34,851 bases of DNA from assembly GCA_000989765.1 (NCBI GenBank), contig LBOW01000009.1, positions 1-34,851 on the forward strand, read 5' to 3'. The notes below the pieces were generated by a model. The model was not told the origin of the DNA. It did not search any database and saw only the letters and a program-made list of their open reading frames with translations. The translations under genes and the position numbers were made by a program. Shown here in pieces: positions 1-7,258 of the stretch (positions are counted from its first letter, which is position 1; each line of letters opens with the position of its first letter). This DNA comes from Candidatus Woesebacteria bacterium GW2011_GWB1_33_22 (lineage in GTDB: Bacteria > Patescibacteriota > Microgenomatia > UBA8517).

Positions 1-122
1 TTTGTACTTCCGAAGATTCCAGGAGATATAAGTAATGCTCCAAAATAAACTGAGGTTAAATTAATCCAAACTCCTGATAAAACCTCAAGTGTTGATTTGC
101 TGGAAAAAGTTATTTTCTGCAT
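1..122 (-). CDS. TM-A small membrane protein, partial copy cut by the window edge
   Basis: This is the N-terminal 40 codons of a small membrane protein, read on the minus strand and running off the left edge of the window. It is almost identical to the complete gene at 1885-2106: in the shared stretch the only coding change is one base at position 100, which gives Ser instead of Asn at residue 8. The start ATG is at 122-120. It carries the family motif W-I-N-L near the beginning of the first membrane segment. Function is unknown. Its presence shows that the window starts inside a duplicated block. Confidence 0.6.
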   Translation of the reverse strand, partial: MQKITFSSKSTLEVLSGVWINLTSVYFGALLISPGIFGST

Positions 123-148
123 CCATATATTCTCTATTATATACTCAA

Positions 149-167
149 ATTGTTGCAAATTGCATGC
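149..167. repeat. 19-bp word containing a palindromic core, copy 1
   Basis: The 19-mer beginning ATTGTTGC and ending GCATGC occurs at 149-167, 2132-2150 and 3191-3209. Each time it lies just before an array of seven-base units. The end of the word is near-palindromic (TTGCATGC followed by GA or AA). At 3191 it is joined directly to a fragment of the cytidylyltransferase gene end at a shared AAATT, which looks like a microhomology junction. Confidence 0.75.
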
Positions 168-1705: not shown

Positions 1706-1786
1706 GGGGCAAAATTAAAAGTAATTAAAAAGTACAAAAACCTTTCTTCAACTCAAATTACAAAACTACTTTTTTGAAACTCTTGG
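1706..1786. repeat. Direct repeat B, copy 2
   Basis: Second copy of the cytidylyltransferase/TM-B convergent junction (see 1121-1204). Copies 1 and 2 bracket HicBA cassette 1. Here the plus-strand remnant is not attached to a gene body, while the minus-strand TM-B gene is complete. Confidence 0.85.
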
Positions 1787-1888
1787 TGTGTTTGAAGTAT
1801 TTAATACAAACCAAGCTAAAAGAATACTTACAATTGCAAGTAAACTATATGCTATCGACGTGCTTGTAAAAAAATTTTGCAGATTCAT
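1766..1888 (-). CDS. TM-B small membrane protein (40 residues)
   Basis: A 40-residue protein consisting of one hydrophobic helix (about residues 12-30, S-I-A-Y-S-L-L-A-I-V then L-L-A-W-F-V-L) and a basic tail ending P-R-V-S-K-K. Its ATG overlaps the stop of the upstream TM-A gene as ATGA, so the two are translationally coupled. Size and arrangement match the 34-residue proteins at 2192-2296 and 3241-3345, although sequence similarity to them is weak. No known family is recognised. The coupling and the recurrence argue that it is a real gene. Confidence 0.6.
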   Translation of the reverse strand: MNLQNFFTSTSIAYSLLAIVSILLAWFVLNTSNTPRVSKK

Positions 1889-2106
1889 ATATTTTTAGCC
1901 TTTTCCGTTAAAATAATTGCTATTACAAAACTTAATATAGCAGATGGTAAGTTTGATAACAAGAGCTTTAGTGTTTCAAATGAGTTTGTACTTCCGAAGA
2001 TTCCAGGAGATATAAGTAATGCTCCAAAATAAACTGAGGTTAAATTAATCCAAACTCCTGATAAAACCTCAAGTGTTGATTTGTTGGAAAAAGTTATTTT
2101 CTGCAT
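1885..2106 (-). CDS. TM-A small membrane protein (73 residues)
   Basis: A 73-residue protein with two predicted membrane helices: one around residues 18-35 (V-W-I-N-L-T-S-V-Y-F-G-A-L-L-I-S-P) and one around 50-66 (N-L-P-S-A-I-L-S-F-V-I-A-I-I-L). It shares a pattern with its relatives at 3342-3533 and 2293-2480: aromatic-(I/V)-N-L-(S/T), then (W/Y)-(F/L)-G-(A/V), then a Pro after the helix, and a second helix ending near A-I-x-(L/I). It is followed by a coupled TM-B gene through an ATGA overlap. Function is unknown. A two-gene unit of hairpin-like and single-span membrane proteins could be a holin-like, immunity or anchoring module, but nothing in the sequence decides this. Confidence 0.65.
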   Translation of the reverse strand: MQKITFSNKSTLEVLSGVWINLTSVYFGALLISPGIFGSTNSFETLKLLLSNLPSAILSFVIAIILTEKAKNI

Positions 2107-2172
2107 CCATATATTCTCTATATATACTCAAATTGTTGCAAATTGCATGCAAATTAAGAATTAAAAGTTAAG
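1985..2172. repeat. Direct repeat A, copy 2
   Basis: Near-identical to 1-190. It contains the TM-A start, its upstream region, the 19-bp word (2132-2150) and the first units of a seven-base array. Confidence 0.9.
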
Positions 2173-2179
2173 AGTTAAA
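2152..2179. repeat. Seven-base-period array 2
   Basis: Four consecutive heptamers of the types AATTAAG, AATTAAA, AGTTAAG and AGTTAAA. Confidence 0.8.
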
Positions 2180-2191
2180 AAGGGATAAAAA

Positions 2192-2296
2192 TTACTTAAG
2201 CACTAAAAAGTAAACCGTAGCGAAAGCTATTAATGACAAACTAAATGCAATTGCTGCTCTTATATTTAAATCGGCTAAATCAATTTTATTTTTCAT
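2192..2296 (-). CDS. TM-B small membrane protein (34 residues)
   Basis: A 34-residue protein: charged head M-K-N-K-I-D-L-A-D-L-N-I-R, then one membrane helix ending V-Y-F-L-V-L-K. It is a clear paralogue of the 34-residue protein at 3241-3345: same head (M-K-N-K-x-D-L), same length, identical last seven residues. The ATG overlaps the stop of the degraded TM-A frame (ATGA at 2296-2293), the same coupling seen in the other two copies. No family recognised. Confidence 0.6.
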   Translation of the reverse strand: MKNKIDLADLNIRAAIAFSLSLIAFATVYFLVLK

Positions 2297-2480
2297 AAAT
2301 TATTCCTTATATCAATTGCTAAGATTAAACTTAGTATAGCCAAAATAATGTTTGTAAACAAGAGCGTATTGGATACTTTTTTCTTAGTAATTGTTGGTGG
2401 AATTATAACAGCAACTCCAAACCATCCTGCTGATAAATTTACAAACAAATCAGAAAGTAAATTATTCCAAACCTGGAGGA
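2293..2480 (-). pseudogene. TM-A relative with lost N-terminus
   Basis: The minus frame reads S-D-L-F-V-N-L-S-A-G-W-F-G-V-A-V-I-I-P-P, then a second helix I-I-L-A-I-L-S-L-I-L-A-I-D-I-R-N-N-L and a stop. This is closely similar to the TM-A protein at 3342-3533. Going upstream the frame passes into a seven-base-period array (2495-2522) with no ATG, GTG or TTG start before homology begins. The 5' end appears to have been replaced by the array. The coupled TM-B gene remains intact. Confidence 0.6.
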
Positions 2481-2494
2481 AGAAAACAGAAACA

Positions 2495-2522
2495 AGTAGT
2501 AAGTAGTAGGTAGAATGTAGAA
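2495..2522. repeat. Seven-base-period array 3
   Basis: Four heptamers of the types AGTAGTA (twice), GGTAGAA and TGTAGAA. The array lies where the start of the degraded TM-A gene should be. Confidence 0.8.
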
Positions 2523-2539
2523 AGGAATGTTAAAAAAAC

Positions 2540-2563
2540 TTACTTTTTGGAAATTCGAGGAGT
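2540..2563 (-). pseudogene. Leftover TM-B tail downstream of HicA cassette 2
   Basis: The minus strand encodes A-T-P-R-I-S-K-K-stop, matching the tail T-P-R-V-S-K-K of the TM-B protein at 1766-1888. It is in the same frame as the preceding hicA, so readthrough of the hicA stop would append it. It probably marks the other side of the HicBA insertion. Confidence 0.55.
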
Positions 2564-2581
2564 TGCACCATCAAAAGGTGT

Positions 2582-2800
2582 TTATCTTCTAAAGAGATCT
2601 GAATTTAATTGAGATTGTCTGATAATACTTCTTAATGTTCCAACTGGTATTGCTTTTGAGTGAAACGAAACTGTAGTGTGAGCTTTTGTTTTGGGATTAA
2701 AATACTGTTTATGACTACTTTTACTAACATTTACTACAAACCCATTATTACTAAGTATCTTTTCAATTTCTCGAGGTTTTAGTTGAGTTAATTTAGGCAT
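2582..2800 (-). CDS. hicA: HicA toxin, cassette 2
   Basis: A 72-residue HicA-family mRNA interferase with the catalytic histidine H30 in the motif S-S-H-K-Q-Y, and the C-terminal P-V-G-T-L-R-S-I-I-R-Q helix typical of the family. It follows its antitoxin gene with a 3-base gap on the same strand. It shares only general family features with the HicA at 1210-1416 (both begin M-P-K-L), so the two cassettes look separately acquired rather than recently duplicated. Confidence 0.9.
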   Translation of the reverse strand: MPKLTQLKPREIEKILSNNGFVVNVSKSSHKQYFNPKTKAHTTVSFHSKAIPVGTLRSIIRQSQLNSDLFRR

Positions 2801-2803
2801 TTA

Positions 2804-3061
2804 TTAAAAGGCAAATTGTACCCCTTGAGGTATGTTTACTTCTGTTTGGCTGATAAAATAGTCTTGTGTGTCTGGTTCCGGAATTTCTGTTTTTGTCTTC
2901 AATAAACCTTCAATATGGCACTCAATGGCTTGTTTAACATTTTTTTGAGTTTCTTCGATTGTTTTTCCAAAATCAGAAATTCCAAGCGTTGGAACTTGGG
3001 CAACATAGAACTTCCCCTCTTTTTTTATAAAAACATTATATTTAAGTAAATTAATTTTCAT
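2804..3061 (-). CDS. hicB: HicB antitoxin, cassette 2
   Basis: An 85-residue HicB-type antitoxin with the pattern K-Y-N-V-F-I-K-K-E-G, V-A-Q-V-P-T-L-G-I-S-D-F-G-K-T and E-T-Q-K-N-V-K-Q-A-I. No DNA-binding domain is visible. The start is supported by TATACT at 3068-3073, which ends 6 bases before the ATG and predicts a leaderless mRNA. It lies upstream of its hicA partner. Confidence 0.85.
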   Translation of the reverse strand: MKINLLKYNVFIKKEGKFYVAQVPTLGISDFGKTIEETQKNVKQAIECHIEGLLKTKTEIPEPDTQDYFISQTEVNIPQGVQFAF

Positions 3062-3067
3062 AAGTTA

Positions 3068-3073
3068 AGTATA
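3068..3073 (-). promoter_or_regulatory. -10 box of HicBA cassette 2
   Basis: TATACT ending 6 bases before the ATG at 3061. Confidence 0.5.
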
Positions 3074-3104
3074 ACACATTTTGGAGATGGAAAAATGAAG
3101 AGAA

Positions 3105-3139
3105 AGTAGAAATTAAAAGTTAGGTATTAGAAATTAACT
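3105..3139. repeat. Seven-base-period array 4
   Basis: Five heptamers with a fixed TA at positions 3-4: types AGTAGAA, ATTAAAA, GTTAGGT, ATTAGAA and ATTAACT. The units differ in sequence but keep the period exactly. The array abuts a cytidylyltransferase-end fragment at 3140. Confidence 0.75.
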
Positions 3140-3193
3140 GGGGCGAAATTAAAAGTAATTAAAAAGTACAAAGACTTTTCTTCAACTAAAATT
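3140..3193. repeat. Direct repeat B, copy 3 (truncated)
   Basis: About 53 bases nearly identical to 1121-1174, the 3' part of the cytidylyltransferase gene. It breaks off at AAATT and continues into the 19-bp word at 3191-3209. It is a remnant with no coding role here. Confidence 0.85.
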
Positions 3194-3210
3194 GTTGCAA
3201 ATTGCATGCG

Positions 3211-3245
3211 AATTAAGAGTTAAGGGTTAAGAGTTAAAAATTACT
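3211..3245. repeat. Seven-base-period array 5
   Basis: Five heptamers of the types AATTAAG, AGTTAAG, GGTTAAG, AGTTAAA and AATTACT, running up to the stop of the TM-B gene at 3241. Confidence 0.75.
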
Positions 3246-3345
3246 TAAGGACCAAGAAGTAAACTACTGAAAACACTATTAGTAAAAATCCGTAGATATA
3301 TATAGCCTTTATATTTATTTCAGTCAGGTCAAATTTATTTTTCAT
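3241..3345 (-). CDS. TM-B small membrane protein (34 residues), second paralogue
   Basis: A 34-residue single-span protein: head M-K-N-K-F-D-L-T-E-I-N-I-K, then a helix rich in I, Y, F and L ending V-Y-F-L-V-L-K. It parallels the protein at 2192-2296 along its whole length. The start codon overlaps the stop of the TM-A gene as ATGA (3345-3342). Conservation of head and tail with a drifting helix suggests selection on a real protein. Confidence 0.6.
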   Translation of the reverse strand: MKNKFDLTEINIKAIYIYGFLLIVFSVVYFLVLK

Positions 3346-3533
3346 ATGTTTCGTAAATTTATCGCTATAACCAAAGACATAATAGCAAAAACAGTGTCAG
3401 CAATCAACAAGGAAGTTGATAATTTATTATCTTTATTCAAAAACGGAGAAATAATTATTATTGCTCCAAGCCAACCTGCAGAAAGGTTAATAAAGAGATC
3501 TGAAATTGAAGAAGGACAAATTCTACTTCTCAT
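3342..3533 (-). CDS. TM-A small membrane protein (63 residues)
   Basis: Two membrane helices: I-N-L-S-A-G-W-L-G-A-I-I-I-I-S-P, then T-V-F-A-I-M-S-L-V-I-A-I-N-L. It is similar to the TM-A frames at 1885-2106 and 2293-2480. The open frame extends upstream to 3599, but I chose the ATG at 3533 (M-R-S-R-I) because it gives a length matching its relative, and TAATAA/TAGAAT-like hexamers lie just upstream. The start is uncertain. An overlapping plus-strand frame at 3346-3642 shows no family features and is treated as a shadow. Confidence 0.6.
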   Translation of the reverse strand: MRSRICPSSISDLFINLSAGWLGAIIIISPFLNKDNKLSTSLLIADTVFAIMSLVIAINLRNI

Positions 3534-4637: not shown

Positions 4638-5435
4638 ATGGATAACACAAACACAACAAACAATTTACAAGTTACAAGCCTGCCTGCGCAGGCAGGTAAC
4701 AAGTTACAAGAAAGTAACAGGGAACAATTATCAAGTCCACAAAAACCACTTGAAAATTGGAAATCAAAGGTTAAAAATTTGGTATCAAAGATTCCTTACT
4801 TTGGTACTCCTGATATGCCTTTGCGGTCTACGACTCAAGATCATTTACCAATTGCTGACATTAAAGATGATATTGTTTTATTTAAAGATGGAGGAGCCTC
4901 AATTGTTTTAGAATCTTCTTCTTTAAACTTTGGACTTTTATCTGAAAAGGAACAGCAGGCGGTTGTTGCTGCTTTTGCTGCTTTAATTAATTCATTGTCT
5001 TTTTCAATGCAAATAGTTGTTCGAACTCAGAGAAAAGATATCTCAGGTTATATCAACTTTTTTGATAGAGAGTCAGCGAAGATAGTAAACCCCAAGTTAA
5101 AAGCGATTACAGAGGACTACAGACGCTTTATAACAGAATCTATCAAGAAAAAAACAGTTCTTGGAAAACGGTTTTTTATAGTCATACCTTTTAGCTCACT
5201 TGAATTAGGTGTAACTAAATCTGCACAATCAATTCTTAAAAAAGGACCTCTTCCTTTTCCAAAAGATTATGTGATGAAAAAGGCTAAAATTACACTTTTT
5301 CCAAAAAGAGATCATTTAATTAGACAGGCAGGGAGACTTGGACTAAGGTTGAAGCAATTAAATACAAATGAGCTTATCGATTTGTATTATGGAATTAATA
5401 ATCCAGAACCACCAGCAGTTAAACGAGATATATGA
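4638..5435 (+). CDS. VirB4/TraC-like N-terminal domain as a separate protein
   Basis: A 265-residue protein resembling the N-terminal, non-ATPase part of VirB4/TraC-type proteins: D-D-I-V-L-F-K-D-G-G-A-S-I-V-L-E, then an A-A-F-A-A-L-I-N-S-L core and V-V-R-T-Q-R-K. Residues 1-45 are a disordered Asn/Gln-rich leader encoded by heptamer arrays and a palindrome. The next gene, the VirB4 ATPase, starts at ATGA overlapping this stop. VirB4 therefore seems split into two coupled proteins, a known arrangement in Gram-positive and CPR clusters. It likely acts at the cytoplasmic face of the membrane with the ATPase. Confidence 0.75.
   Translation: MDNTNTTNNLQVTSLPAQAGNKLQESNREQLSSPQKPLENWKSKVKNLVSKIPYFGTPDMPLRSTTQDHLPIADIKDDIVLFKDGGASIVLESSSLNFGLLSEKEQQAVVAAFAALINSLSFSMQIVVRTQRKDISGYINFFDRESAKIVNPKLKAITEDYRRFITESIKKKTVLGKRFFIVIPFSSLELGVTKSAQSILKKGPLPFPKDYVMKKAKITLFPKRDHLIRQAGRLGLRLKQLNTNELIDLYYGINNPEPPAVKRDI
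4661..4720. repeat. Seven-base-period array 9 interrupted by an 18-bp palindrome, coding
   Basis: Heptamers of the type CAAGTTA occur on both sides of the perfect palindrome CCTGCCTGCGCAGGCAGG (4679-4696). The whole lies in frame in the VirB4-N gene, where the palindrome encodes part of S-L-P-A-Q-A-G. The palindrome is far more GC-rich than its surroundings, which suggests an inserted element. Confidence 0.75.
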
Positions 5436-7258
5436 ATAACAACACAGCAAAAATAACACCAGAAGCACAAAACACAGAAACAGTGAAACCTGTAATTTTA
5501 AATCCTGTTGCAATGGTTGAAAGCGGGGAAATGCAGTTACATGATGTTATTGCCCCAAATGACGTAGAAGTAGATTTTGATTTTGTTAAAGTCAATAATG
5601 TCTACTATAGAACCTTGTTTGTTGCTGGTTATCCAAGATTCGTTGCTCCTGGATGGCTTGAACCAGTTGTCAATTTTAATAGTTCACTGGATATTTCTTT
5701 TTATGTTTACCCCGTCCAGGGGAAATCTGTACTTGACGATTTGCGCCGTAAAATCGCAGAAATGGAGGCTGAAATTTCAACTGATATTGAAAGGGGAAGA
5801 ATAGTTGATCCTTCAACAACTGCAAAACTTGAAGACGCAAGGGCCTTACAAGAACAACTTGTTAAAGGGATAGAACGCTATTATGAATTTTCTTTCTATA
5901 TAACAATTCCAGCCAATTCAGTTGATGAGTTAAATAATATTAGCCGTCAAATAGAATCACTTCTAGGTTCACTTTTGATTGTTGCTAAGCACGCATCGCT
6001 TGATCAAAGAGAAGGTTTTCTTGCATCAGCCCCATATGGACAAGATAGGTTAGCAATAACTAGAAATATGGATACCACCTCGGTGGCTACAACTTTTCCA
6101 TTTACTTCAGCAGAACTTAGTTCAGACAGGGGAGTCTTGTATGGAATTAACTCTCAGAATGAATCATTTATTATTTTTGACAGGTTCTCTTTAGAGAATG
6201 GAAACATGACTGTTTTTGCCACATCGGGATCCGGAAAATCCTATTTCGTAAAACTAGAAGCCCTAAGATCTTTGATGATTGGTACTGAAGCAATTATTCT
6301 TGACCCAGAGGCAGAATATAAAGCACTTTGTGAAGCTGTTGGTGGGGAATATATTGCCTTTTCATTTAACTCTCCTGCCAAAATTAACCCATTTGACTTA
6401 GCCCAAATTAGAGAGGAAGGGGAGAACCAGTTGGGACTAAAAATATTATCGCTTCATTCTTTAATGAAAGTCATCATGGGCCAAATATCTCCAACTCAGG
6501 AAGCAATGCTTGATCGTGCTTTAATTTTAACCTATAAAGCTAAAGGAATAACTAATGATCCAGAAACACAAACCAAGGAACCACCTTTAATTGAAGATCT
6601 TTACAAAACATTAATTGGCATGGAGGTTCCTGATGCACTTGATTTAGCAGCTCGCCTTGAAAAATTTGTAAGGGGATCTTTCCAAGGAATTTTTGATAAA
6701 CAAACAAATATAAATCTTAATAATCCCTTTACAGTTTTTTCGGTTAAAGATTTACAAGATGCACTTCGCCCAATTGCTATGTTTATGATTCTTGACTACA
6801 TCTGGACCAGAGTTAAAAAGGATATAAAAAGAAGAATATTAATTGTTGATGAGGCTTGGCACATGATGAGATATCCAGACACCGCACAATTTTTGTGGAG
6901 TGTTGTTAAAAGAGCCAGAAAATATTATCTTGGATTAACAACAATCACTCAGGATGTTGAGGACTTCCTAAGTCAAGATATAGGAAAGGCAATAGTCACA
7001 AACTCAGCCCTTAGACTTCTATTGAAACAGTCTCCAGCAGCAATAGATAAGATTGGAGATCTTTTCTATTTGTCTCAAGGTGAAAAACAATTGCTTTTAG
7101 CTGCAAATGTGGGGGAGGGGATTTTCTTTGCAGGACCACATCATGCACCAATTAGAGTTGTTGCCAGTGAGGAAGAACATAAACTTATAAATACTAAGCC
7201 GCAAGACTCACCACAAGGGACCATGCCAAATTTAAAGGCATGGAATAAGGAGGCATAA
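5432..7258 (+). CDS. VirB4-type secretion ATPase
   Basis: A 608-residue P-loop ATPase of the VirB4/TraC/TrbE family, which powers type IV secretion or conjugative pilus functions at the inner membrane. Walker A is A-T-S-G-S-G-K-S (residues 263-270) and Walker B is I-L-I-V-D-E-A-W (469-476). The downstream T-T-I-T-Q-D motif and the C-terminal G-E-G-I-F-F-A-G are family features. The N-terminal ~230 residues continue the VirB4 N-domain. It overlaps the upstream gene by 4 bases (ATGA), and its TAA shares an A with the next ATG. No VirD4 coupling ATPase is visible nearby. Confidence 0.9.
   Translation: MNNNTAKITPEAQNTETVKPVILNPVAMVESGEMQLHDVIAPNDVEVDFDFVKVNNVYYRTLFVAGYPRFVAPGWLEPVVNFNSSLDISFYVYPVQGKSVLDDLRRKIAEMEAEISTDIERGRIVDPSTTAKLEDARALQEQLVKGIERYYEFSFYITIPANSVDELNNISRQIESLLGSLLIVAKHASLDQREGFLASAPYGQDRLAITRNMDTTSVATTFPFTSAELSSDRGVLYGINSQNESFIIFDRFSLENGNMTVFATSGSGKSYFVKLEALRSLMIGTEAIILDPEAEYKALCEAVGGEYIAFSFNSPAKINPFDLAQIREEGENQLGLKILSLHSLMKVIMGQISPTQEAMLDRALILTYKAKGITNDPETQTKEPPLIEDLYKTLIGMEVPDALDLAARLEKFVRGSFQGIFDKQTNINLNNPFTVFSVKDLQDALRPIAMFMILDYIWTRVKKDIKRRILIVDEAWHMMRYPDTAQFLWSVVKRARKYYLGLTTITQDVEDFLSQDIGKAIVTNSALRLLLKQSPAAIDKIGDLFYLSQGEKQLLLAANVGEGIFFAGPHHAPIRVVASEEEHKLINTKPQDSPQGTMPNLKAWNKEA

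What the first reader, a model, noticed from the sequence alone, without database searches (positions are those of the whole stretch)
1766..3533. A recurrent two-gene module of tiny, translationally coupled membrane proteins
Three times on the minus strand a two-helix protein of about 63-73 residues (TM-A, with N-L-(S/T)...(W/Y)-(F/L)-G) is followed through an ATGA overlap by a one-helix protein of 34-40 residues (TM-B). Pairs: 1885-2106 with 1766-1888; 2293-2480 (5' end lost) with 2192-2296; 3342-3533 with 3241-3345. A fourth TM-A begins at the window edge. The TM-B genes are short enough for standard annotation to miss. Coupling plus paralogy indicates a functional pair, and its interleaving with HicBA cassettes suggests a defence, immunity or toxin-like role. 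That role is inference.
Basis: partly seen in the sequence, partly recalled or inferred. Interest (0 to 1): 0.75.

Follow-up and report, generated by a model that had tools for sequence, protein, structure and literature searches.

The report
Paired tiny membrane proteins in Microgenomates
Many tiny-genome bacteria of the Microgenomates group carry a scattered, undescribed gene pair that makes two very small membrane proteins translated together; one is almost never found without the other, which would fit a membrane toxin kept in check by its partner.

Summary
A profile built from them finds TM-A in 52 of 374 Microgenomatia genomes. In 70 of 77 places examined a one-helix ORF (TM-B) starts at the TM-A stop, 41 of them by exact ATGA overlap. 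After other genes in the same loci this happens 4 times in 356. A separate TM-B profile finds the same loci, plus divergent TM-As. The pair is under purifying selection. It is accessory: missing at syntenic sites in a sister species, up to six or seven copies per genome, and each copy is closest to one in another genome. No Pfam, NCBIfam, PHROG, PADLOC or PDB family covers it, and none was found in phages, plasmids or viral contigs. The HicBA neighbourhood is local: most copies sit among unrelated genes, with only mild enrichment of toxin-antitoxin genes. One asymmetry stands out. TM-A almost never lacks TM-B (1 of 77), while TM-B often survives a lost or broken TM-A (15 cases). I therefore favour, without experiment, a membrane toxin (TM-A) held by a membrane antidote or assembly partner (TM-B).

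The parts
1885..2106 (-). TM-A1: two-helix protein, 73 aa, subtype NLTS..SPGIFG; intact
   Evidence: same subtype paired with the same TM-B subtype in G041, G296, G277, G237
1766..1888 (-). TM-B1: one-helix protein, 40 aa, starts by ATGA overlap with TM-A1
   Evidence: homologue MINAENFFTSTAVAYTLLLIAIMFLAGLTLWTSKTSKRRSH in L024
2293..2480 (-). TM-A2: two-helix protein without a usable start codon upstream of helix 1; probably decayed at its 5' end
   Evidence: E = 1.2e-12 to TM-A3
2192..2296 (-). TM-B2: one-helix protein, 34 aa, ATGA overlap, intact
   Evidence: E = 8.7e-14 with the TM-B profile
3342..3533 (-). TM-A3: two-helix protein, 63 aa; orthologue in G001 at the syntenic site, dN/dS 0.14; predicted helical hairpin (helices 7-31 and 37-62, mean pLDDT 82)
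3241..3345 (-). TM-B3: one-helix protein, 34 aa, ATGA overlap; dN/dS 0.03 against G001
3..158 (-). TM-A4: start of a near-identical copy of TM-A1, cut by the contig end
138..193 (+). repeat copy 1 (holds TTGTTGCAAATTGCATGC at 150-167), 5' of TM-A4
2121..2176 (+). repeat copy 2 (TTGTTGCAAATTGCATGC at 2133-2150), 5' of TM-A1
3180..3235 (+). repeat copy 3 (TTGTTGCAAATTGCATGC at 3192-3209), 3' of TM-B3

Best explanation
TM-A/TM-B is a compact, mobile accessory operon encoding a heteromeric membrane complex that works like a toxin and its antidote, both inside the membrane. TM-A is a helical hairpin with an Asn-x4-Trp motif in helix 1 and usually an Asn or Asp in helix 2; it would form the active, potentially harmful part (holin-like or ion-leak). 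TM-B has one helix and in many members a lysine-rich tail; it would be made alongside TM-A by ATGA stop-start coupling, bind TM-A's helices and hold it inactive. Shown here: the pairing, the overlap, purifying selection, joint inheritance, accessory distribution, and that TM-A is almost never found without TM-B. Inferred: that the two proteins bind each other, that TM-A is harmful, and that TM-B neutralises it.
For: Pairing: 70/77 TM-A stops against 4/356 controls, exact ATGA 41/77 against 3/356. Reciprocal TM-B search finds the same loci and divergent TM-As of the form SNFVVVW. Joint inheritance: Mantel r = 0.54, 0 of 2000 permutations reach it. Purifying selection on both frames. One-sided dependence: TM-A without TM-B in 1 of 77 places, and that one lies within about 2.5 kb of two complete pairs. 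Against this, 9 orphan TM-Bs and 6 TM-Bs behind a stopped or frameshifted TM-A: G000:C2, G001:C2, G370:C32, G104:C2, G366:C20, G266:C1 (p = 0.001 between the two search sets, p = 0.007 against length-neutral decay). Accessory: absent from the syntenic FBA and trigger-factor loci of G001; 52 of 374 genomes; nearest TM-A in another genome for 67 of 69. The pair's dS between G000 and G001 (0.34) is below that of two genes measured for comparison (0.81, 0.93), as expected if exchanged recently. Orphan antitoxins are common in known TA systems (PMC7192599), and TA systems are patchy and prone to transfer (PMC2701414).
Against: No toxicity or binding has been measured. TM-A could need TM-B only for stability or insertion, without being toxic. 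Orphan TM-Bs could act alone as small regulatory subunits. Toxin-antitoxin neighbours are only mildly enriched (21/224 against 6/179, p = 0.017; members of one module are counted separately and the Pfam tallies list only the 25 commonest families). Some broken TM-As may be assembly errors. A 2009 survey of type II systems noted that none with a membrane component was then known (PMC2701414), so the prior is low.
Confidence: 0.42

Rival explanations
1. A small non-toxic membrane complex: TM-A and TM-B are obligate subunits (TM-B stabilises or inserts TM-A) that modulate a larger membrane machine or form a minor channel or transporter, and are gained and lost as an optional function.
For: Strong purifying selection, conserved polar residues in both helices of TM-A, an unusual fused TM-A-TM-B frame in L077, housekeeping surroundings, and a three-gene variant with a second one-helix protein look like subunits of a complex.
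Against: Up to six or seven divergent copies in one genome with no constant neighbour, absence from most relatives, and loss at syntenic sites are odd for a subunit of a fixed machine; orphan TM-Bs are then unexplained.
Confidence: 0.35
2. Holin/antiholin-like remnants of prophages or other mobile elements.
For: Two-helix and one-helix proteins of this size resemble holins; weak chance-level matches to Holin_9 and Phage_holin_3_6 (E about 0.01-0.03).
Against: No match in phage genomes, plasmids, IMG/VR contigs or PHROGs; no phage genes recur beside the pairs.
Confidence: 0.07
3. An antiphage or anti-competitor module (abortive-infection pore with its partner, or a bacteriocin-like peptide with immunity protein) rather than a maintenance toxin-antitoxin pair.
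For: Accessory, multi-copy, sometimes in islands with HicBA, PemK, DUF433/DUF5615 and HEPN-MNT; Microgenomates mostly lack CRISPR (PMC4742961).
Against: No PADLOC family fits; no sensor or enzymatic domain; no export gene or leader sequence seen.
Confidence: 0.12
4. TM-B frames are translation artefacts or leaders, not proteins.
For: They are short and fall below usual annotation limits.
Against: dN/dS 0.03 with seven synonymous changes to one non-synonymous; a protein profile of TM-B gives 76 hits in 52 genomes.
Confidence: 0.01

Closest known systems
DUF6722 (PF20482), family of unknown function
   Same: Short membrane protein of similar size; two of 82 pooled TM-A/TM-B proteins match with best E = 4e-4; a DUF6722-like frame in G326:C45 (L211) is also followed by an overlapping one-helix frame.
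   Different: All matches are below the curated cut-off of 27 bits (best 18.7); most TM-As do not match at all.
Type II toxin-antitoxin modules
   Same: Two tiny genes, overlapping, patchy and mobile, solitary antidotes retained.
   Different: Both proteins are integral membrane proteins and neither has a DNA-binding or nuclease domain; a 2009 survey reported no type II system with a membrane component (PMC2701414).
Type I membrane toxins (TisB, ZorO, AapA1 and relatives)
   Same: Tiny hydrophobic membrane proteins; TM-B resembles them in size and charged tail (general knowledge; PMC11449926, PMC9860968, PMC10537873 listed).
   Different: Their antitoxin is an RNA; here the partner is a second membrane protein and the genes overlap in the same sense.
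Class II holins and antiholins of phages
   Same: Two-helix hairpin with a small partner (general knowledge).
   Different: No sequence match and no phage context.

Membership tests
Type II toxin-antitoxin module | two small adjacent, overlapping genes | tested here: met
Type II toxin-antitoxin module | patchy distribution and signs of transfer | tested here: met
Type II toxin-antitoxin module | soluble proteins, one usually with a DNA-binding antitoxin domain | tested here: not met
   both are membrane proteins without any Pfam domain
Type II toxin-antitoxin module | toxin harmful alone, relieved by antitoxin | not testable with these tools
   needs expression; only indirect evidence from one-sided loss
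HicBA toxin-antitoxin system | HicA/HicB domains in the pair itself | tested here: not met
   HicBA are separate neighbours at 1210-1665 and 2582-3061; TM-A/TM-B have no such domain
Phage holin | match to a holin family or position in a lysis cassette | tested here: not met
DUF6722 (PF20482) | score above the curated cut-off (27 bits) | tested here: not met
   best 18.7 bits, 0 of 12 genomes over the cut-off
Known antiphage defence system (PADLOC) | match to a defence model | tested here: not met
   best E = 0.008 in 82 proteins
Annotated protein family of any kind (Pfam, NCBIfam, PDB) | significant match | tested here: not met

The most novel reading that the evidence does not exclude
A new class of toxin-antitoxin (or toxin-immunity) system in which toxin and antidote are both tiny integral membrane proteins, translationally coupled, spread through Microgenomates by horizontal transfer and overlooked because both genes are so short.
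Probability: 0.35. Interest if true: 0.85.

Novelty: categorically new. Interest (0 to 1): 0.62.

Why it matters
If right, this is an undescribed, widespread two-protein family in organisms with very small genomes, where keeping six or seven copies of an optional module needs explaining. The pairs are short enough to synthesise and test in a laboratory strain in one experiment, so the toxin-antidote idea is directly testable. It also shows that one-helix proteins of 30-45 aa in CPR genomes can be recognised reliably by their coupling to a partner.

Tried and rejected
The first genome-contig query was too diverse and was replaced by a more uniform alignment (A6). Plasmid, phage and IMG/VR searches found nothing. 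A general link with HicBA was tested and is weak. A general link with toxin-antitoxin genes was tested against 48 control stretches of the same genomes and is only mild. Recoding of the in-frame TGA in G000:C2 was considered: other TM-As in the same genome end in TGA within the ATGA overlap, so a nonsense mutation near the W of SAGW is simpler; a UGA-as-Gly or -Trp code was not pursued. The window repeats were considered as integration sites: among the four genomes searched, TTGTTGCAAATTGCATGC occurs only in this island (three copies) and once in G001 near the start of a 714-aa gene, so they look like local duplications, not a general attachment site. Structure prediction gave only a hairpin; a fold search with two helices would be uninformative and was not run. 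Literature searches gave no report of this family.

Full report
WHAT IS THERE. The window is contig C9 of an 860-kb draft genome. On the minus strand three pairs of small genes lie at 1766-2106, 2192-2480 and 3241-3533, each with an ATGA overlap. TM-A2 lacks a start codon before helix 1. A fourth TM-A, 99% identical to TM-A1 at its start, is cut by the contig end. The pairs alternate with two HicBA modules (1210-1665 and 2582-3061) and a PemK/MazF-like gene (237-689), just outside a type IV secretion-like operon (PrgI-like and VirB4-like frames from 3651 on; my reading of the sequence).

THE FAMILY. Searching the own genome with TM-A3 gave three further TM-As on contigs C6, C3 and C2, each followed by a TM-B. 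A 12-row profile found TM-A in 52 of 374 genomes of the class (39 of 299 good ones), up to seven matches in one genome with the cut edge copy counted. Outside the class it is rare. Named hits are all Microgenomates or unplaced Patescibacteria: Woese-, Davies-, Collier-, Curtiss- and Gottesmanbacteria among them.

THE PAIR IS REAL. For 77 TM-A places I asked whether a 26-55-residue ATG frame with a transmembrane segment starts within -30 to +40 of the TM-A stop: 70 of 77, against 4 of 356 stops of other frames in the same loci. One of those four proved to be a TM-B behind a divergent TM-A. An exact -4 overlap occurs in 41 of 77 against 3 of 356. Most of the seven misses are a non-ATG start, a contig end, a frameshifted TM-A or a fused frame (L077); only G041:C8:3578 truly lacks a TM-B, and two complete pairs lie within about 2.5 kb of it. 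A TM-B profile run independently gave 76 hits in 52 of 351 genomes. Of 27 hits not next to a known TM-A, 17-18 have an upstream two-helix frame, mostly a divergent TM-A type with S-N-F-V-V-V-W in helix 1. Both frames are under purifying selection between G000 and G001 (dN/dS 0.14 and 0.03). TM-A and TM-B distances correlate (Mantel r = 0.54, 0 of 2000 permutations).

ANATOMY. In 72 TM-As the strongest positions are Asn (90%) and Trp (85%) spaced N-x4-W in helix 1, Pro (82%) after helix 1 and Asn/Asp (67%) in helix 2. AlphaFold2 gives a helical hairpin. TM-B begins with an acidic/Asn stretch, has one helix and often ends in lysines. A subtype with A-W-F-(T/S)-A-G has a third, one-helix gene; 12 of 71 pairs have such a TM-C.

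IT IS ACCESSORY. G001 lacks the pair at two loci where G000 has it between conserved neighbours. For 67 of 69 pairs the nearest TM-A is in another genome, not a paralogue. Between G000 and G001 the window pair has lower synonymous divergence (0.34) than two other genes measured (0.81, 0.93), as expected after recent exchange of the island. Neighbours are diverse: 140 Pfam families in 125 flanking proteins, none in more than three. No phage, plasmid or viral-contig match.

TOXIN-ANTITOXIN NEIGHBOURS. The syntenic island of G001 holds HicBA, two PemK-like genes, DUF433/DUF5615, the pair and HEPN-MNT (the PemK-like calls are my reading from similarity to the window's copy). Class-wide the link is mild: about 21 of 224 neighbours against about 6 of 179 in control stretches (p = 0.017), counting members of one module separately and with listings limited to 25 families. 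HicA is within 2 kb at only three loci.

MECHANISM. The most informative result is the one-sided loss. TM-A without TM-B: 1 of 77. TM-B behind an absent TM-A: 9 (three of them weak hits, E about 1e-4). TM-B behind a stopped or frameshifted TM-A: 6. TM-A therefore seems not to be tolerated, or not to be stable, without TM-B, while TM-B can stand alone. Toxin and antidote behave this way: orphan antitoxins are common (PMC7192599). A subunit that needs a stabilising partner would too. I put 0.42 on the first and 0.35 on the second.

COMPARISON AND NOVELTY. No curated family fits. The closest is DUF6722, below its cut-off. As a toxin-antitoxin system it would be unusual, since a 2009 survey reported no type II system with a membrane component (PMC2701414). 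I rate the family as categorically new in the sense that I found no described system with this composition; its function remains inferred.

Noticed in passing
G000:C2:18568-18759 (L007:1486-1677): TM-A with an in-frame TGA in the conserved NLSA.FLG motif and an intact TM-B behind it; G370:C32 has TAG at the Trp codon of the same motif. Looks like TGG-to-stop decay.
   Followed up: partly
L077:2107-2409 (G247:C33): TM-A and TM-B read as one continuous frame; a natural fusion or an assembly indel.
   Followed up: no
L274 (G041:C8:1-5000): Cluster of three TM-As and two TM-Bs in tandem, with a repeated stretch (..GWFPVVSIHLP..) behind the units, like the window's array.
   Followed up: partly
window:759-1192: Cytidylyltransferase-like gene with a frameshift near its 3' end; its last 55-85 bases are repeated at 1700-1786 and 3131-3193, as if units had been inserted behind that gene.
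   Followed up: partly
L143:11995-15582 (G001:C10): VirB4-like ATPase of 1195 aa whose extra 590 or so residues sit in the P-loop and end in HN before Ser: reads as an intein absent from the window's 608-aa copy (5432-7258).
   Followed up: no
L211 (G326:C45:7632-7784): DUF6722-like frame followed by an overlapping one-helix frame: the pair arrangement may extend to DUF6722 in other phyla.
   Followed up: partly
L249, L250, L253, L255, L261, L262, L269-L271: Solitary TM-B genes without any TM-A in 330 bases upstream.
   Followed up: yes
L015, L020, L036, L069, L087, L088, L090, L092, L094, L096, L097, L099: Three-gene variant: a second one-helix protein (TM-C) follows TM-B, in nearly all AWF(T/S)AG-type loci and some others.
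   Followed up: partly
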